From the NCBI RefSeq assembly GCF_022809315.2, contig NZ_JAKZJU020000001.1:2207001-2271000 (forward strand): a stretch of 64,000 nucleotides of DNA, written 5' to 3'. The notes under the pieces are model-generated. The model saw only the letters and a list, made by a program, of their open reading frames with translations. It was not told the origin of the DNA and did not search any database. This document shows positions 922 through 9,763 of the stretch, one piece after another. The first letter of the stretch is position 1. Each line of letters begins with the position of its first letter. This DNA comes from Mesosutterella faecium. Lineage in GTDB: Bacteria > Pseudomonadota > Gammaproteobacteria > Burkholderiales > Burkholderiaceae_F. The translations under genes and the position numbers were made by a program.

Positions 922-3900
922 TCAGAAGGAAAGCCTCACGCCGGCGTTCACGCTCCAGGCGCTCTCAAGGGAGTTTCCGAAGCGGTACTCGGCGTCCGCA
1001 AACGCGAAGGCGCTCCGCCCGAGCGCCACCTGGAAGCCCGCGCCCGCGTCGTACCAGCTGCCCTTGTTTTCGATCGAGGCGTCGTAGCCCGAGGCGCGGG
1101 TGGTCGAATCGAAGGCGCGGATCTTCTGCTTCCCGCTCCACTCGCGAATCCAGTCGGCCTTGAAGTAGAACGAGCTCGCCTTCTCGGCGCCGAAGCTGCG
1201 CCCGGCCCGGAAGCCCGCGCGCGAAAGCACCGAATTGAAGCTGTCCTGCGCGATCCGCGAGCCCTGCGTCGTGCTGTAGTTCCCGTCGGTCACGTGCAGG
1301 TACTGCAGCTGCAGCTCAGGCTCCACGAACCACCCCTCGGCGCCGAGCGGGAGCTTGTGGCCCGCCTCGGCCGAAAAGCCGAGGACGTGGTTGTCAAAGT
1401 CGCCCTTCACGCGGCCGCCCGAGCCGTTCACGATGTTAAAGCTGTTTGCGAGCCGCCCCCACTGCGCGACAAGGTCGACGTAGGCGCCGCTTACTCCCAG
1501 CCACGTGCCGTAGGCCTTCACGCCGAAGCGCCGGGTGTCCCCGTCTCCCGAGAGCCCCTTGAAATCGTCGTCGGCATGCCGCCAGTCGAGGGCCAGGCCG
1601 GCAAGCGCCCGCCCAGCGCTAAAGGAGAAGGCGCGGTCAAAGCCCGCCTGGTAGGTCGCGGCCGAACTCTTGAAGTCGCCCCGGCCCGAGGAGCTCTCGA
1701 GATTGTCATAGCGGATGCGAAGCCACAGGCCGTCGTCTCCCTTTGCGTGCCGCGCTTCGCCCAGCCTCTTTACGAGCCGGTCCATGTCGACCGCGTTCCA
1801 GTACAGGGAGCGCGCGGCCCCGAGCACCGCGCGGCCCGCGTCGGAGAGCTCCACCTTCGGCTTTTCAGGCGTCTGGCCGCCGTTGTCGGGCTGAACCGGC
1901 GCTACGGGCTGGTCAGGCGTGGCAGGTGTGTCGGGGGTATCAGGGGTGTCAGGAGTCTCTGGAGTATCGGGGGTGACAGGCTTGGTCTCAGTCGCCTCCG
2001 CGATGTACCAGTTCGTGCCCTCCTCGCCAAAGGCGGCGTCCGTGAAGGCAACGCCCGGCCGGTAGGTGCCCTCGCCGCTTCCCTCGCCGTTGTAGAGAGC
2101 GTTGGAGGCGTCGCCCTTCACGTAGTCGCTCTTTGCAAGCGAAAAGGTGACGTTTGTCACGCCCTGGTCCTTCATCTCGGCCTTGAACTCATTGCCCCAG
2201 CCCGCGGCCTTCCCGTTCGTGGTCGCAAGCCGCACGCCCTTCAGCGCCTCGATGTTCGGGACCTCGCTTCTGTCAACGACCAGGGCGATCGTGTTGGAAG
2301 AGCCTTTCTGCAGGTCCGTCGTATAGAGCATGCTGCCGCGGGACGGAGTCGGGCTCGCCCGCATGACGAATGTCCCGGAGCCGGACAGGCTTCCCGCGGT
2401 GAAGCTTGCGCCCTCGGACTTCGAGAGGTCGACCGTTCCGCCGCCCTCGCCGAAGGCAAGACTCTTCACGAAGCTCCTGCCGTAGGCCGTCCAGGCCGCC
2501 CCCTTGGAGAGCGAAACCGAAGCGCTCCCGGCCGTGGAGGCGGGGACCATGCTCCCGGAGCCGTAGAAGATCCCCGGGCTGGTGAGGAAACTTACCGACC
2601 GGGCCGCTGAGGCCTCCCCTCCGAGGTCGTGGTAGTCGTCGATCTGGCCGCGGATGAAGGAGTCGGAGCCGCTCGCCTCGAGCGTGAGCTGCCCGCCGTT
2701 CGCGACATAGATGTCGCCCGCGATCTGCGTGGTGCCGCCCGAGAAGGAGAGCGAGGCGGGGGTCGATTCGGTCCCCGCGTCGCCGCCCACAAGGATCGTG
2801 CCGCTGATGCGCCGCGTGCCTTCGCCGCTGAAGGCGACGGAGCCCGCCTGAACCACCCGGATCGCGGCGCTGCGGATGTTGAGCCCATCATTGGAGGGCG
2901 CGCCGGAAAAAGCGCCCTTGTAGTCGCCCGAGACGCTCTCGTCGATCGTGATGTCGGCATTTCCGGTGATGTTGAGAGTGGCCGACCGGATTTGCACGCC
3001 GTTGGCCGCGCCATTCGCCCCTTCGGACGAGATGTCGGCGACAGACAGATCACCGACGGAGACGGGGAGCGCGATGGAATTCAGGTAAAGGCCCCTCGCC
3101 TTGCCGTTTTCTCCTGTAGCCGTGACGCCTTTCACGCTGAGGCTGCCAAAGCTCGCGGGAACAGGGTAATAGTGAACCATTGATGAGCCGTTGTCTCTCC
3201 AGTACTCTTCACTGAAATCCTCGAGAATGACGCCGTCAGCCCGGGTGACGCCCTTGACATTGGCCACCTGCACTGATGAGAACGTCAGCTTGTTTGAATC
3301 GCCGAGTGTGCTCCTTTCAGTATACAAAGCCAAGCCGGAGGCACTCGCTCCTGTCGACGTGATTCCGTCAACCGTGAGGCTGCCCACGCTGATGTCCGGC
3401 TGCTCCTCTACAAAAAAGCCGGACGTATCGCTTACGCCCGTGATATTCCTGATATCCATGCGGTCAATGTCGACATAGTGGGCTCCGCCGGCCCCGACGC
3501 CGTAGGCGAGCATCGTCGGAGTAGTGTTGTTCAGCGTGTCGACTTCTATATTTTTCGCTTTGATGTCACGCACAGCAATGCCAATGATGCCCGTGAGGTC
3601 ACGGATCGAGAGCGTCCCCGTGACTTCTATGATTCCGTAGCTGCGGATAGCGGTTTCCGCGGTGTTGTGTTCCAGCGTGATGTCTGTGGCATGAACCTCG
3701 CTGCCCCATCCAAGATACATGAGAAAAGTCCCTGTACTCGGCAAGGGAGTGGAATTCAAGTCTCTTCGGTCATCGAGGGTTATGCCTCCCGTCGAATGTG
3801 AAATGGTGAGGCCCTGGTTGAAATGAAGGACCGGCTCAATGTAGCCAATGTATCTTTTTTTGTCGTTATAGCCAGGATTGGGAAGGATATCCAAAGCCAG

Positions 3901-4349
3901 TCCCGTCCCCTCGAATAAGACGGGCGCATTAAACGAGATTGAAACAGGAGTTTTTTCAGAATCCGTGCCGGCTGCGGTGTTGCGAACCAGGATGCCGGTG
4001 TAAGGGTTCGCGAAGTCCCCGGTGGTGCCCTTGAGATTTACTGCGGAAGCGTTGATGACGAGGTCGTTGTTGCCGCCTTCGACCCGAATGCCTGTGGACT
4101 GAAAGTCCATGCGGTGAGTGCCTGAATCAAGCGTTGTTTTGGTGTTTTGGCTCTGGCGGTCAAGCCACACGCCGCCGTAAGGGAGCATATCGGCTGAAAA
4201 AGTTACGTCCTCATTCCAGGACTGGCTTCCATACACCGGCCAATAGAGCGTTTCTGCTCCGGCGGTGGGGGGGGGGGCAGCGCAACAACCGCCGCTACGG
4301 CGGCGGCCAAAAGGGGCTTTCTAAAATTTTCCGAACAGCGGGCAGGCAT
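922..4349 (-). CDS. Autotransporter 1 (type Va secretion), out of phase at a poly-C tract
   Basis: Classical autotransporter: an N-terminal signal peptide, a repetitive beta-helix passenger, a Pro/Thr/Asp linker (TPDTPETPDTPD type), an alpha-helical plug around LSDAGRAVLGAARS and a C-terminal 12-strand beta-barrel ending in Phe (VRLSF). It would display its passenger on the outer surface. An ideal AAGGAG site lies 5 bases before the ATG at 4349, which opens a signal peptide (MPARCSENFRKPLLAAAV) aligning with that of paralogue 2. After 24 codons the frame enters 11 consecutive C (4277-4267) and slips out of phase with the passenger, which can otherwise be read from a GTG at 4236 without any signal peptide. 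Nine or 12 C would restore an uninterrupted protein of about 1141-1142 residues, with a plausible signal-peptidase site at AGA. The state in this assembly is therefore OFF. A sequencing miscount in the homopolymer is the alternative explanation. Confidence 0.85.
1910..1977 (-). repeat. Tandem Pro-Asp-Thr linker repeat in autotransporter 1
   Basis: About seven degenerate 9-base units encode TPD, TPE and TPA triplets between the passenger and the barrel. Autotransporter 2 carries a shorter version at about 5757-5805. Copy number could vary by slippage while keeping the reading frame. Confidence 0.6.
4267..4277 (-). repeat. Poly-C(11) homopolymer, putative phase-variation tract
   Basis: Eleven uninterrupted G on the plus strand, which read as C11 in the coding strand, sit inside the signal-peptide codons of autotransporter 1. 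This is the only homopolymer of this length noticed in the window. At 11 it breaks the reading frame; at 9 or 12 it closes it. The paralogue at 4787-8161 has no such tract at the equivalent place. Confidence 0.8.
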
Positions 4350-4786
4350 ACACTCTCCTTGCATACGTCAGTTGATTTATGAGCAAAGGGTTTTATTTTA
4401 ACGCTTCTTAACAAAATCAAACATTTATTTATGTATAAAAAATAACTCTCTAATAGCTGGCTATACAGGGGATCATTAACAGTTGAAATGCTCTGAATGG
4501 AAGCCGGCTCAAAGAAGAAGGGGCCGCTGACTGACAGAAAATCCGCTTCGACGCAGGCTCGCAGAAAAGAGAGTGAAGTGCTCCGGCCGGTCTTGGGAAG
4601 AGAAATGGGAAAAGGAAGGATGGACAGATGGGGCACTTTCAGGAGGAGCGCCCGCTTCCAGCAAACCGTACACTGCTTCTTCCCGCCCCTGGCCGGAACT
4701 TCAGGCATCTTAAAAAGCAAGCGGCCCGCCCCGGGCATCTGACCCCGGGGCAGGCCGCCTGGCAGAGCGCGCTTTCCTTTCTTTAA
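4350..4786. other. Intergenic region between the two autotransporter genes
   Basis: It holds the AT-rich upstream region of autotransporter 1 (about 4371-4460), with possible minus-strand -10 elements such as TAAAAT but no clear -35 partner. It also holds about 250 bases with no feature I can support, and the terminator of autotransporter 2 at 4712-4758. No convincing gene is present. Confidence 0.5.
4712..4758 (-). terminator. Rho-independent terminator of autotransporter 2
   Basis: On the minus strand GCGGCC...CCCCGGGG pairs with CCCGGGG...GGCCGC, followed by TTGC and five T. It begins about 30 bases after the stop codon of autotransporter 2. Confidence 0.75.
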
Positions 4787-7700
4787 TCAGAAGGAAAGCC
4801 TCACGCCGGCGTTCACGCTCCAGGCGTTTTCAAGCGAATGCCCGAAGCGGTACTCGGCGTCCGCAAACGCGAAGGCGTTCCGCCCGAGCGCCACCTGGAA
4901 GCCCGCGCCCGCGTCGTACCAGCTGCCCCGGTTCTCAATCGAGGCGTCGTAGCCCGAGGCGCGGGTGGTCGAGTCGAAGGCGCGGATCTTCTGCTTTCCG
5001 CTCCACTCGCGGATCCAGTCGGCCTTGAAGTAGAACGAGCCCGCCTTCTCGGCGCCGAAGCTGCGCCCAGCCCGGAAGCCCGCGCGCGAAAGCACCGAAT
5101 TGAAGCTGTCCTGCGCAATCCGCGAGCCCTGCGTCGTGCTGTAGTTCCCGTCGGTCACGTGCAGGTACTGCAGCTGCAGCTCCGGCTCCACGAACCACCC
5201 CTCGGCGCCGAGCGAGAGTTTGTGGCCCGCCTCGGCCGAAAAGCCGAGGACGTGGTTGTCGAAGTCGCCCTTCACGCGGCCGCCCGAGCCGTTCACGATG
5301 TTAAAGCTGTTTGCGAGCCGCCCCCACTGCGCGACAAGGTCGACGTAGGCGCCGCTTTCTCCCAGCCACGTGCCGTAGGCCTTCACGCCGAAGCGCCGGG
5401 TGTCCCCGTCGCCCGAGAGCCCCTTGAAGTCGTCATCGGCATGCCGCCAGTCGAGGGCCACGCCGGCAAGCGCCCGCCCGGCGCTAAAGGAGAAGGCGCG
5501 GTCAAAGCCCGCCTGGTAGGTCGCGGCCGAGCTCTTGAAGTCGCCCCGGCCCGAGGAGCTCTCGAGATTGTCATAGCGGATGCGAAGCCACAGGCCGTCC
5601 TCGCCCTTTGCGTAACGCGCCTCGCCCAGCCTCTTCACGAGTCGGTCCATATCGACCGCGTTCCAGTACATGGAGCGCGCGGCCCCGAGCACCGCCCGAC
5701 CCGCGTCGGAGAGCTCCACCTTCGTCTTTCCGCTGTTGGGCTGGACTGGCGTCACCGGCTCATCGGGCGTATCGGGCGTATCGGGCGTGTCAGGGGTGAC
5801 AGGCTCGGTCTCGGTCGCCTCTTCTATATACCAGTTCGTGCCTTCCTCGCCAAAAACCGAGTCGGTGAAGGCGACGCCAGGCCGATAAGTGCCCTTGCCG
5901 CTGCCTTTGCCGTTGTAGAGGGTGTTTTCCGCATCGCCCTTCACGTAGTCGCTCTTTGCGAGCGTGAAGGTCACGTTGGTCACGCCCTGGTCCTTCATTT
6001 CGGCCTTGAACTCGTCGCCCCAGCCGGAGGCCTTCCCGTTCGTGGTCGCAAGGCGCACGCCTTTCAGCGCCTCGATGTTCGGGACCTCGCTCCTGTCAAC
6101 GACCAGGGCGATCGTGCTGGAGGAGCCTTTCTGCAGGTCCGTCGCATAGAGCATGTTGCCGCGGGACGGAGTCGGACTCGCCCGCATGACGAATGTCCCG
6201 GAGCCGGACAGGGTTCCCGCCGTGAGGCTCGCGCCCTCGGACTTTGAGAGATCGACCGAGCCGCCGCCCTCGCCGAAGGCGAGGCTCTTCACGAAGCTCC
6301 TGCCATAAGAGGTCCAGGACGCCCCTTTGGAGAGCAAAACCGAGGCGCTCCCGGCCGTGGAGGCGGAGGCCATGCGCCCGGAGCCGGTGAGGAAGTTCAC
6401 CGTCCGGGCCGCTGAGGAATCGCCCCCTAGGTCGTGGTAGTCGTCGATCTGGCCGCGGATGAAGGAGTCGGAGCCGCTTGCACCGAGCGTGAGCTGCCCG
6501 CCGTTGGCGACGTAGATGTCGCCCGCGATCTGCGTCGTGCCGCCCGAGAAGGAAAGGGAGGCGGGGCTCGACTCGCTCCCCGCGTCGCCACCCACGAGGA
6601 TCGCACCATCGATGCGCCGCGTGCCTTCCCCGCTGAAGGCGACGACACCCGCTTGATCTACCCGGACCGCTGCGTTCCGCACGTTCACCTCCTCTTCCGA
6701 GGGAGAGCCGGAAAACGCGCCCTTGTAGTCGCCCGAGGCACTCTCTTCGAGCGTGATGTTGACATTTCCGGTGATGTTGAGAGTCGCCGACCTAAGCCGC
6801 ACGCCGTAGGCTGAGCCGTTTTCTCCCTCGGCCGAGATGCTGGCAACCGACAGATCCCCGACGGTGACGGGAAGAGCCACGTTCGTCATATAAAGGCCGT
6901 TGGCCGTGCCTGTATCACCCGTGGCGGCGACGCCCTCTACGTTGATACTGCCAAAATTCCCGGAGACAGGGTAAATGTAGATGGGGACGTCGTCACTATA
7001 TGTCGTCCAAGCATCCCGCCAATCTTCCAAATAAACGCCGTCCGCACGGGTTACGCCCTTGACTTTGGAGACCTTTGCCGTAGAAATTTCGACTTTGCTT
7101 GCTGGACGTAGGCTCTCAATTTGAGACATCAAAATTCCGCTGGCCCACTCCGAGGTCGAGGCGACGGCGTCAACGGTGAGAGAATTCACGTTGACGGCTC
7201 CCTGGTGCTCAGCAAAAAAAGCGGCTGTCATGGCGTCGCCGGTCACATTGGTGACAGTCACGCGGTCAGCTCGAAAAAGAGAGCTTGATGTGTCAACAGG
7301 GAACGCCTGGTCTCCTGACAAGGACTTCACATTGTCAATTTCGATGTTGTGGGCATAGAAGTCGTCTGCGTCGGTCTGCAGAGGTGAGCATCCTGTAAAG
7401 CCATGGCTTGAAAACGTGCCGGAAATATAAAACTTGCTCGCGGAGCTGGAAACGCCTACGTCTGCGGCATTGTCATTGAGCGTGATGTTAGTGGCGCGGA
7501 TTTCCGTCCCTTCGCTCCCAAGATAAGTGAGGAAAGTTGTGCCGACAGGAATCCATTCCAAGTCAGCGTCTCTGCGCTCGTTAAGGGGGATGGTTCCTGT
7601 GGAATTCGAGATGGTGAGCCCCTGGTTGAATTTGAGGACAACGTTCAGGGGACCGATCTTGTTTTGGTGGTCATGCGAGCCGGGGAAGTTGACGATGTCC

Positions 7701-8161
7701 ACGGCAAGAGCCTTGCTGCCGGAAAATGACACGGGGGCGTTGAACTCTATGGAAACGGGGAGATTCTCAGAGGCCGTGTTGCGCGCGGTGTTGGCGATCA
7801 GGATGCCGGTGTAAGGGTTGCGGCTGTCCCAGGTGCTGCCATTAAAGTTCACGGCGGAAGCGTTGATGACGAGATCGTTGTTCCCACCGTCGATGCGGAT
7901 GCCCGTGGACTGAAATGAGATCTGGTGCTCGCCCGCGTCAAGCGTCGTCGTGGTTTTCTGCGACTGGCGGTCAAGCCACACGCCTCCGTACGGGAGCTCC
8001 TGGGCCGACAGGGTCACATCCTCGTTCCAGGACTTGCTCGATTCCAAAGGCCCGTATTCAACCGTTGCCGCTTCGGCGCTGAAAGGAGCGGCGGCAGTCC
8101 CCGCGGCCACGGCGGCGGTTAAAAGCGTTTTTCTGAAATTTTGAGGTGAGAAAGCAGACAT
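4787..8161 (-). CDS. Autotransporter 2 (type Va secretion)
   Basis: Intact 1124-residue paralogue of the neighbouring autotransporter. Residues 1-32 form a signal peptide (hydrophobic LLTAAVAAGTAAA, cleavage probably after AEA). A long Gly/Ser/Thr-rich beta-helical passenger follows to about residue 820, then a TPDTPDTPDE linker and a helical segment (LSDAGRAVLGAARS). The C-terminal beta-barrel ends in VRLSF, with the terminal Phe needed for Bam-dependent assembly. The ATG at 8161 has AAGGAG 5 bases upstream. From the linker to the stop it is nearly identical to copy 1, whereas the first half of the passenger has diverged strongly. That pattern suggests duplication followed by gene conversion of the barrel end or diversifying selection on the exposed part. 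The passenger function is unknown: I see no protease triad or recognisable adhesin domain. Confidence 0.92.
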   Translation of the reverse strand: MSAFSPQNFRKTLLTAAVAAGTAAAPFSAEAATVEYGPLESSKSWNEDVTLSAQELPYGGVWLDRQSQKTTTTLDAGEHQISFQSTGIRIDGGNNDLVINASAVNFNGSTWDSRNPYTGILIANTARNTASENLPVSIEFNAPVSFSGSKALAVDIVNFPGSHDHQNKIGPLNVVLKFNQGLTISNSTGTIPLNERRDADLEWIPVGTTFLTYLGSEGTEIRATNITLNDNAADVGVSSSASKFYISGTFSSHGFTGCSPLQTDADDFYAHNIEIDNVKSLSGDQAFPVDTSSSLFRADRVTVTNVTGDAMTAAFFAEHQGAVNVNSLTVDAVASTSEWASGILMSQIESLRPASKVEISTAKVSKVKGVTRADGVYLEDWRDAWTTYSDDVPIYIYPVSGNFGSINVEGVAATGDTGTANGLYMTNVALPVTVGDLSVASISAEGENGSAYGVRLRSATLNITGNVNITLEESASGDYKGAFSGSPSEEEVNVRNAAVRVDQAGVVAFSGEGTRRIDGAILVGGDAGSESSPASLSFSGGTTQIAGDIYVANGGQLTLGASGSDSFIRGQIDDYHDLGGDSSAARTVNFLTGSGRMASASTAGSASVLLSKGASWTSYGRSFVKSLAFGEGGGSVDLSKSEGASLTAGTLSGSGTFVMRASPTPSRGNMLYATDLQKGSSSTIALVVDRSEVPNIEALKGVRLATTNGKASGWGDEFKAEMKDQGVTNVTFTLAKSDYVKGDAENTLYNGKGSGKGTYRPGVAFTDSVFGEEGTNWYIEEATETEPVTPDTPDTPDTPDEPVTPVQPNSGKTKVELSDAGRAVLGAARSMYWNAVDMDRLVKRLGEARYAKGEDGLWLRIRYDNLESSSGRGDFKSSAATYQAGFDRAFSFSAGRALAGVALDWRHADDDFKGLSGDGDTRRFGVKAYGTWLGESGAYVDLVAQWGRLANSFNIVNGSGGRVKGDFDNHVLGFSAEAGHKLSLGAEGWFVEPELQLQYLHVTDGNYSTTQGSRIAQDSFNSVLSRAGFRAGRSFGAEKAGSFYFKADWIREWSGKQKIRAFDSTTRASGYDASIENRGSWYDAGAGFQVALGRNAFAFADAEYRFGHSLENAWSVNAGVRLSF

Positions 8162-8251: not shown

Positions 8252-9763
8252 GGTTCTTCAAGGAATAGCAGGAAGAACTACCTCAAATCGAATACCGCTC
8301 TCGCTCGCAAGCAGCCTGCAGCGAGCCATTTGAAGCGTTTTCTGGATCAGGGAATTCGGGACTAGAAAAAGGACAAAAACTCCGGTTTAACAAATTCATC
8401 CCTGCCGCCTAAACCCGATTTTCTCTCCCAGCTCCGCTGCCCCGGTTCTTTCATCAAAGACATGAAACGAGAAGCGGACGGAAGCATTCACATCTACTTG
8501 GAACCTGTGTGCGAAGCAGTCTGCCCCGCTTGCGGTAAACGGTGTTTCTCAATTCACGAAAGCACGCGACGGATTGTGAGAGACGCGCCTCTGATGACGC
8601 GGGAACGCGTGTACGTTTACTTTGAAGCCCGGCGGGTTCAATGCAGCTGCGGCTGTCATAAGACGGAACGCCCGCCCTGGGTCAGCCAGCGATCCAGGCT
8701 GACGAATCTGATGATGATAACATCCAATCACTGCTCCGGCTCCGTGTGTCCATCAGCGATGCAGCCGCCCACTACCGCCTGGGCTGGGACACGGTCAAGG
8801 CTTGTGACAAGGTTCTCCTCAAGTATTTATTCCAGAAAGTTGATTTCACCGGTGTGTAACACCTGGCCATTGACGAATTCGCCGTCCCTAAGGGACATCG
8901 GTACGCAACGGTCGTCATGGATCTGGACACAAGGCGCATCCTGTGGGTAGGAAAGGGAAAAAGCCGCAGAGACGTAGAGCCCTTCTTTGAACTCCTGCGG
9001 CAACACCACGCCTCCGGCCAGATCCAGTCCGTATCCTGCGGCATGAACGCCGCATATCCTCGGATGGTGAAGGATCACCTGAAGGGGGCGGTCGCGGTCT
9101 ATGACCTTTTCCACGTCATGGCCAATTTTATCAAGGAGGTCCTGACTGAGGCCAAGACCGTCATCCGTGAGCAGATACGGAAGGAACTTCGTAAAAACAG
9201 CAAAATCCGGGAGAACGAGGAAACGAGGGAAAGCAGAGCCGGTCTGGTCAGGAAGCTCTCCGATTTGAAAAGCGCGGAATGGGTGCTTGCGCGGCGGCCG
9301 GACGATCTGCAGGTCGACATTGAACCGTCTGAAGGCCGACAACGAGCTGCTGGCTTCCCTCTACCCGATTGCCGATTTAATCCGAAGAATATGGTGCTGC
9401 CGTTCGGAGGCTCTGGCTCGTGAGGAATTACAAAAAACAAAAAACCTGCTGGAGGCTGCAGCTGAGAGACATGATTTCAGTCCGGCACGGAGATTTGCCA
9501 AAATGCTCGGCCGCCGCGCAGAAGGCATTGTCAATGCCGGGAAGTTCAAACGGGGTACCGGCCCCCTTGAAGGAGCGGACAATGCGATCAAAGTGCTCAG
9601 GCGAACGGCATACGGCTTCAGAGACTTTGAGTATTTTGTACTGAAAATCAAGTCAATTTTCCCCGGAAGGAACCTGTCTCCATGGAGAAGCCTTCCAGAC
9701 TATGCCGCTGTGTTGAAATCAGGGCTGTGGGTACCAGCCTTTCCCGGCATACCGTGAAGAACC
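8252..9763 (+). mobile_element. ISL3-family insertion sequence, degenerate copy
   Basis: The element spans 1512 bp between imperfect terminal inverted repeats. The left end starts GGTTCTTCA (8252-8260) and the right end is its complement TGAAGAACC (9755-9763). About 20 of the first 28 positions match between ends. The transposase inside is broken. The 8-bp flanks (8244-8251 and 9764-9771) do not match, so no target-site duplication survives. The left end lies 90 bp upstream of the autotransporter 2 start codon and may have changed its promoter. Confidence 0.8.
8462..9757 (+). pseudogene. ISL3-family transposase, disrupted
   Basis: The N-terminal part (from the ATG at 8462) has the ISL3 zinc-finger pattern CPACG and a second pair in VQCSCGC. 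The frame is lost near 8700, where the homologous reading moves to another frame and runs into a TAA at 8857-8859, just before HLAIDEFAVPKGHRY. A central DDE-type part (DLDTRRILWVGKGKSR, later YDLFHVMANF) continues to about 9300. The C-terminal part, with TGPLEGADNAIKVLRR carrying the presumed catalytic Glu, is again in the first frame. At least two frameshifts and one nonsense codon make this a non-functional relic. Confidence 0.85.

What the first reader, a model, noticed from the sequence alone, without database searches (positions are those of the whole stretch)
4261..4349. Poly-C(11) switch in an autotransporter signal peptide, currently OFF
An ideal ribosome-binding site and ATG (4349) open a signal peptide that aligns with that of the neighbouring paralogue, but 11 C shift the frame so the passenger is unreachable. 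Nine or 12 C would give one uninterrupted autotransporter. Slipped-strand mispairing in such tracts is a known way for pathogens and commensals to switch surface proteins. The paralogue has no tract, so one copy would be constitutive and one phase-variable.
Basis: partly seen in the sequence, partly recalled or inferred. Interest (0 to 1): 0.85.

Follow-up and report, generated by a model that had tools for sequence, protein, structure and literature searches.

The report
Poly-C switch in commensal surface protein
A gut bacterium carries a run of eleven C's in the start of a large surface-protein gene that puts the gene out of frame, very probably a slippage on/off switch of a kind known from pathogens, and related gut bacteria carry similar runs in similar genes.

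Summary
On the minus strand a Shine-Dalgarno (4360-4355) and ATG (4349) open a signal peptide broken by 11 C (4267-4277). The ATG frame stops after 48 codons; a separate 1,104-aa autotransporter frame (922-4236) stays open. The 74%-identical neighbour A (4787-8161) has no tract there. The genome matches Mesosutterella faecium AGMB02718T, a pig-gut isolate. Tract length alone is not significant (genome runs of 9 or more: 10 observed, 33 expected). Position is: 3 of the 10 runs lie between ATG and exported protein of autotransporter-type genes (P about 1e-7). Tract genes are not decaying: a YadA-type gene, out of frame in two species, has dN/dS 0.135. Lengths differ between relatives: one autotransporter is in frame with 6 G here and out of frame with 8 G in a second species; a sulfatase-family gene has C12 here, C7 in a third. 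Five further PF03797 autotransporters and one fimbrial gene in other Sutterellaceae share the layout, three of six in frame. Best reading: a slipped-strand phase-variation switch, OFF in the consensus; switching itself was not observed. It is a new member of a known kind (meningococcal NalP/MspA, Bordetella tcfA/bapC); my searches found no report for this family.

The parts
4355..4360 (-). Shine-Dalgarno AAGGAG, 5 nt before the ATG
   Evidence: sequence
4278..4349 (-). start codon and first part of the signal peptide of gene B (MPARCSENFRKPLLAAAVAAVVAL)
   Evidence: aligns by eye with the signal peptide of gene A
4267..4277 (-). C11 homopolymer, the proposed slippage tract
   Evidence: one of 10 runs of 9 or more C/G in the 2.6-Mb genome
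4203..4349 (-). frame read from the ATG in the assembled sequence: 48 aa, then stop (OFF product)
922..4236 (-). gene B body: passenger and barrel, open frame of 1,104 aa, out of register with the ATG (frame open up to 4320)
   Evidence: 74% identical to gene A
991..1728 (-). autotransporter beta-barrel (PF03797, E 3.9e-38) of gene B
4787..8161 (-). gene A: paralogous autotransporter without a tract in its signal peptide, 1,124 aa, uninterrupted from ATG
4718..4761 (-). intrinsic-terminator-like hairpin after gene A (18 pairs, 15 GC), suggesting that B is its own transcription unit
   Evidence: consensus scan; 3 terminator-like sites against 1.3 in shuffles; no sigma-70-like promoter found in 4200-4900

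Best explanation
Gene B is a phase-variable type Va autotransporter. Slipped-strand mispairing during replication changes the length of the C tract. One of three length classes joins the SD-ATG and signal-peptide start to the passenger-barrel frame (ON); the other two end in a short peptide (OFF). The assembled consensus is an OFF class. Gene A next door lacks the tract, so the pair is probably one steadily expressed and one switching copy with different passenger tips. B is one of several such tract loci in this genome. Shown: the anatomy, open passenger, purifying selection, recurrence, and length differences of other tract genes between relatives. Inferred: slippage as the cause, reversible switching in culture, expression, and the surface (adhesin-like) role.
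For: (1) SD-ATG-signal peptide-C11-passenger layout with no start codon in the passenger frame before the tract. (2) Passenger intact: 1,104 codons without a stop; A/B dN/dS 0.23 (codons 42-150), 0.37 (150-450), 0.19 (450-840) and 0.13 (barrel). (3) Same layout in two YadA-type genes of this genome, C10 and G9, both ATG frames stopping just past the tract; placement P 9e-8 to 2e-6. (4) The C10 YadA-type gene has its orthologue in G004 with C9 at the same place, inside a locally conserved stretch; out of frame in both, yet dN/dS 0.135 over 752 codons. (5) Length change toggling frame: the PF03797 gene of L186 (6 G, in frame) is out of frame in L189 (G004, 8 G), 93.6% nt identity. (6) C12 in a sulfatase-family gene here versus C7 in G002; this 7-nt gap is the only one in a 615-nt alignment at 98%. 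(7) In 67 Sutterellaceae genomes the SD-ATG-C9+ patterns have 25 distinct sites against 6 hits of the reversed patterns (P 4e-4; 21 against 6, P 0.003, without the sites of G000 and G004); 9 of 25 lead into Pfam-confirmed surface proteins, 3 in frame and 6 out, about as random phase predicts.
Against: No reads, second strain or expression data. B itself was found only in this genome: no B orthologue in the other 60 of 61 genomes. Tract length is not improbable by composition. All three tract autotransporters of this genome are OFF in the consensus, possible by chance ((2/3)^3, about 0.3) but also fitting little use. 16 of the 25 family-wide sites do not lead into a confirmed surface protein. 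Gene A itself shows dN/dS 0.86 against M. porci A in codons 42-450, at very low divergence (dS 0.024), so constraint on this passenger is weak or recent there. The G002 copy with C7 lies in a gene that looks disrupted.
Confidence: 0.85

Rival explanations
1. The phase call is wrong: the true consensus tract length differs (homopolymer error in the assembly), and B is simply ON, with a tract that may or may not vary.
Against: Illumina reads were also made. Other assemblies also hold the tract layout, and lengths differ between them. An error of one or two bases would change the phase, not the presence of the tract.
Confidence: 0.2
2. B is a decaying duplicate, a frameshifted pseudogene whose tract is incidental.
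For: B is absent at the same place in M. porci (A is followed directly by the flank), so it is dispensable. Autotransporter genes with G tracts upstream or inside do decay in Campylobacter lineages (PMC7168839, passages).
Against: 1,104 codons without a stop and A/B dN/dS 0.13-0.37 by region; constraint persists in the two-species out-of-frame YadA-type gene (0.135).
Confidence: 0.06
3. B is expressed at a low constant level by transcriptional or ribosomal slippage on the C tract, without genomic switching.
For: All three tract autotransporters are out of frame in this consensus, yet the passengers tested (B against A, and the C10 YadA-type gene) are constrained.
Against: Other family members are in frame (L242, L243, L256), and genomic lengths differ between relatives. 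Poly-C is less prone to such slippage than poly-A/T (recalled).
Confidence: 0.12
4. B is mainly a silent donor: recombination through the near-identical 3' halves feeds B sequence into A, with the tract keeping B quiet.
For: A and B barrels are closer to each other (dS 0.126) than A is to M. porci A (dS 0.342), whereas codons 42-840 of A are nearly identical in the two species (dS 0.02-0.04). M. porci lacks B, as a crossover between 3' halves would leave it.
Against: The likeness is in the barrel, not the passenger tip (codons 150-450 of A are only 44% identical to B). Import of a foreign barrel into M. porci explains the same dS pattern.
Confidence: 0.08

Closest known systems
NalP and MspA autotransporters of Neisseria meningitidis (AusI in PMC5472700; that MspA and AusI are one protein is recalled)
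   Same: Autotransporter genes with a poly-C tract inside the coding sequence; tract length sets ON or OFF, with immunoblot proof for NalP (PMC3723659, passages; PMC5472700, passages).
   Different: Pathogen proteins, not compared with B by sequence here. In B the tract lies inside the signal peptide, and B sits beside a tract-free paralogue.
tcfA and bapC of Bordetella pertussis
   Same: Autotransporter-family genes with C/G tracts in the coding sequence that vary across strains and within single cultures (PMC1891110, abstract and passages); Bordetella is also in Burkholderiales (recalled).
   Different: Respiratory pathogen; the tcfA tract begins at codon 130, not in the signal peptide.
Neisserial AutA/AutB (AAGC repeats just after the start codon) and nadA variants with a poly-C stretch
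   Same: A repeat in an autotransporter gene switches it on or off (PMC5472700, passages).
   Different: Tetranucleotide unit in AutA/AutB; nadA is a trimeric autotransporter that also has a promoter repeat.
G-tract pilus switch of Bifidobacterium breve UCC2003
   Same: Replication slippage at an intragenic G tract switches a surface structure in a beneficial gut commensal (PMC9187656, abstract).
   Different: Sortase-dependent pili, not autotransporters; tract lengths were measured directly by deep sequencing there.

Membership tests
Type Va autotransporter (PF03797) | C-terminal autotransporter beta-barrel over the curated cut-off | tested here: met
   PF03797 E 3.9e-38, 132 bits against a cut-off of 26; TIGR01414 E 9e-55
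Type Va autotransporter (PF03797) | Sec signal peptide joined in frame to the passenger | tested here: not met
   Not in the assembled phase: the ATG frame stops after 48 codons; the signal peptide start is present but out of register, as expected for an OFF phase variant
Type Va autotransporter (PF03797) | Beta-helical passenger | tested here: inconclusive
   AlphaFold2 model of the 1,104 aa is beta-rich but of low confidence (mean pLDDT 53, 4 sequences)
Simple-repeat (slipped-strand) phase-variable gene | Long homopolymer between start codon and protein body | tested here: met
   C11 between ATG and passenger; hypermutability itself not measured
Simple-repeat (slipped-strand) phase-variable gene | Tract length polymorphic between strains or relatives | tested here: inconclusive
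   No other copy of B found; length differences seen for other tract genes of the genus
Simple-repeat (slipped-strand) phase-variable gene | Downstream coding sequence kept intact despite the OFF frame | tested here: met
   1,104 codons open; A/B dN/dS 0.13-0.37 by region
Simple-repeat (slipped-strand) phase-variable gene | Reversible ON/OFF expression within a clonal culture | not testable with these tools
   needs reads, fragment analysis or proteomics

The most novel reading that the evidence does not exclude
Sutterellaceae, little-studied gut commensals, carry a family-wide poly-C/G phasome centred on autotransporters (classical and trimeric), a fimbrial subunit and sulfatase-family envelope enzymes. 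Tracts arise repeatedly in or just before signal peptides, so each strain is a mixture of surface types. In Mesosutterella this is combined with recombination between a switching and a tract-free paralogue.
Probability: 0.5. Interest if true: 0.68.

Novelty: new member of a known kind. Interest (0 to 1): 0.55.

Why it matters
Phase variation of autotransporters is known mainly from respiratory and enteric pathogens. Here the same device appears in a gut isolate whose describing paper reports a protective effect against inflammatory bowel disease (M. faecium, PMC11022602; title, start of abstract and passages seen) and, by pattern, in other Sutterellaceae. If real, one strain is a mixture of surface types, which would affect adhesion, host recognition and reproducibility of studies of these bacteria as beneficial strains. 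It is cheap to test: tract lengths can be read from existing sequence data and colony PCR. The tract-free paralogue provides an internal control.

Tried and rejected
Searches that led nowhere or were limited: the genome-collection scan with P0002 found one relative, M. porci, at gene A. The protein-database search with the B frame gave 4 hits, none a B allele in another phase (only 7,991 candidates were scored). Among the 120 listed hits for each YadA-type gene I saw no N-terminus running through a proline or glycine tract as an ON form of these genes would. No sigma-70-like promoter was found in 4200-4900. The structure model is of low confidence and was not used for a fold search. Chance from tract length alone was rejected as an argument.

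Other long runs of this genome were inspected and not counted as switches: C1:250576, 514984, 1464372, 2085180 (21 G) and C2:167688. C1:318284 does match the SD-ATG pattern (L227), but its tract lies inside a 388-codon frame of the other strand, so I did not count it either. None of these was scanned against Pfam. L162 and L166, frames without a nearby ATG, were inspected and left unexplained. Of the 64 genus autotransporter rows, two (G003:C4 and G002:C32, the last below the cut-off) were not fetched; 60 loci were fetched and A and B came from the window. In 8 of the 60 the longest frame that one search reported was not the one named (L152, L158, L174, L195, L197, L198, L199, L207); C/G runs of 7 or more were listed over the whole locus in every case, so tracts would still have shown, but the start-codon and other-repeat columns are not valid for those 8. 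Some loci are cut by contig ends.

Full report
WHAT IS THERE. On the minus strand, AAGGAG (4360-4355) stands 5 nt before ATG 4349. The ATG opens MPARCSENFRKPLLAAAVAAVVAL, a signal peptide start, which runs into exactly 11 C (4267-4277). The ATG frame continues into prolines and ends after 48 aa. A different frame is open for 1,132 codons from 4320 to 922; its first start codon is GTG 4236, past the signal peptide. From 4236 it encodes 1,104 aa with a C-terminal PF03797 barrel (E 3.9e-38). Gene A (4787-8161) is an uninterrupted 1,124-aa paralogue, 74% identical over 1,106 aligned positions, with a matching signal peptide and no tract there. A strong terminator-like hairpin lies after A (4761-4718); no sigma-70-like promoter was found in 4200-4900.

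WHICH ORGANISM. The genome has 2,606,253 bases in 3 contigs, the one with the window 2,332,978 long. Mesosutterella faecium AGMB02718T is reported with 2,606,253 bp and N50 2,332,978, from swine faeces, sequenced by PacBio Sequel and Illumina NovaSeq and assembled with Flye and SPAdes (PMC11022602: start of abstract, passages). The paper calls it a single circular chromosome, which does not fit 3 contigs. A term search of its main text found no 'autotransporter', 'YadA' or 'phase vari'. G004 is probably the M. porci assembly: its contig with gene A has the same length, 176,817, as the M. porci contig of L042.

IS IT MORE THAN CHANCE. By a second-order Markov model from the window, 33 C/G runs of 9 or more are expected in the genome and 10 are seen; for 11 or more, 2.4 expected and 3 seen. 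Tract length alone is therefore no evidence. Place is: the genome has 10 PF03797 and 6 YadA-anchor matches, and 3 of the 10 tracts lie between ATG and exported protein of such genes: B (C11), a YadA-type gene in L047 (C10) and one in L049 (G9). With 150 nt per gene the binomial P is 9e-8, with 400 nt 2e-6. Over five genus genomes 4 of 26 tracts do so (0.02 expected, P 5e-9; genome sizes rounded). In all three genes of this genome the SD-ATG frame ends shortly after the tract. For L049 the YadA anchor was found by the genome search (40 bits, over cut-off); a whole-protein hmmscan of the same frame did not list it.

NOT DECAYED. A/B dN/dS is 0.23 (codons 42-150), 0.37 (150-450), 0.19 (450-840) and 0.13 (barrel). 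The YadA-type gene of L047/L160 has an orthologue in G004 (L161) with C9 instead of C10 at the same place. Both are out of frame, yet dN/dS is 0.135 over 752 codons at dS 0.41. Four autotransporter pairs without tracts gave 0.13-0.35 between the same two genomes, so tract genes are as constrained as their neighbours. Against this, A versus M. porci A reaches 0.86 in codons 42-450, at dS 0.024, which is little data. Selection has acted on these proteins, so they are probably made at times.

TRACTS CHANGE LENGTH. The PF03797 gene of L186 (this genome) has 6 G inside its signal peptide region and is in frame. In L189 (G004; 93.6% nucleotide identity over 4.7 kb) the run is 8 G and the frame is broken. 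The Shine-Dalgarno also differs by one base. A sulfatase-family gene (L048; the best NCBIfam matches are phosphoethanolamine transferases such as CptA, all below cut-off) has C12 after a possible ATG without a clear Shine-Dalgarno. The G002 copy has C7, and this 7-nt gap is the only one in 615 aligned bases at 98% identity. That copy is split between two contigs 195 bases further on, with a 6-base overlap of the matches, probably an insertion, so its tract may be under relaxed selection.

FAMILY-WIDE. In 67 Sutterellaceae genomes the patterns AGGA-N(4-10)-ATG-N(46-76)-C9 and -N(15-45)-C9 give 13 and 12 distinct sites; the reversed patterns give 4 and 2 hits (P 4e-4, or 0.003 without the four sites of G000 and G004). 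Of the 25 sites, 9 lead into Pfam-confirmed surface proteins: L220, L222, L241, L242, L243 and window B (PF03797), two YadA-type genes (L247, L248) and a fimbrial subunit (L256); 3 are in frame (L242, L243, L256) and 6 out. L249 looks secreted by eye but has no Pfam match and is cut by its contig. The other 15 were judged from their downstream frames only and not scanned. About one in three in frame is what random phase gives. L222 has its tract inside the signal peptide, as B does. The survey of 62 of 64 genus autotransporter loci found 5 with a C/G run of 8 or more in the start region: B, L160, L161, L164 and L189 (plus window).

HOW B AND A RELATE. M. porci (L042) has A followed directly by the flank that lies beyond B here. 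No B orthologue appeared in the 60 other genomes. A and B passengers differ far more (dS about 0.9-1.4 in codons 42-450) than A differs from M. porci A (dS about 0.02-0.04 in codons 42-840), so B is probably old and lost in M. porci, or was imported here. The A and B barrels are alike (dS 0.126), while A and M. porci A barrels are not (dS 0.342): recombination between A and B, or import into M. porci.

MECHANISM. Slipped-strand mispairing at the tract is the standard cause of such length changes (established knowledge). One of three length classes joins start and passenger, and the assembled one does not. Shown: anatomy, constraint, recurrence, length differences of other tract genes between relatives. 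Inferred: slippage, reversible switching in culture, expression, function. Confidence that B is phase-variable: 0.85.

KNOWN OR NEW. NalP and MspA of meningococcus are switched by poly-C tracts inside autotransporter genes, with immunoblots for NalP (PMC3723659, passages; PMC5472700, passages). tcfA and bapC of Bordetella vary within cultures (PMC1891110, abstract and passages). A gut commensal, B. breve, switches pili by a G tract (PMC9187656, abstract). In Campylobacter some tract-linked autotransporters decay (PMC7168839, passages). Searches for Sutterella with phase variation (3 papers, none on topic by title and start of abstract), Parasutterella with phase variation (1, likewise), Sutterella with autotransporter (11, 10 listed, none on topic by title and start of abstract) and Sutterella with slipped-strand (0) found no earlier report; the library lacks most subscription papers. 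So: a new member of a known kind, in a lineage where these searches found it undescribed.

Noticed in passing
L047:4395-6677 (minus); L161: YadA-type trimeric autotransporter with C10 between ATG and signal peptide, out of frame; the orthologue in G004 has C9, also out of frame, with strong purifying selection.
   Followed up: yes
L049:961-5820 (minus): A second YadA-type gene (1,619 codons) with T8-G9 just after the ATG; the ATG frame stops right after the tract.
   Followed up: partly
L186 and L189: Orthologous PF03797 autotransporters with 6 G (in frame) and 8 G (out of frame) in the signal peptide region.
   Followed up: yes
L048:5301-6959 (plus); L209; L265: Sulfatase-family (phosphoethanolamine-transferase-like) gene with C12 at its 5' end here and C7 in G002; another sulfatase-family gene in G002 (C70) has C9 near its start.
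   Followed up: partly
L220, L222, L241, L242, L243, L256: Autotransporter (and one fimbrial) genes in other Sutterellaceae with a C9-C10 tract between SD-ATG and the protein body, three of the six in frame.
   Followed up: partly
L047:10181-10201: A 21-base G run about 3.5 kb from the C10 YadA-type gene, not clearly tied to a gene start.
   Followed up: no
window 8462-9423: ISL3-type transposase in two overlapping frames (zinc ribbon PF14690 and DDE PF01610), looks frameshifted, just upstream of gene A.
   Followed up: partly
window 4787-5640 versus L042: The barrel of A is much more diverged from M. porci A (dS 0.34) than codons 42-840 of A (dS 0.02-0.04), a recombination footprint.
   Followed up: partly
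G002:C86/C59 (L209, L212): The sulfatase-family gene is split over two contigs with a 6-base overlap of the matches, probably an insertion.
   Followed up: no
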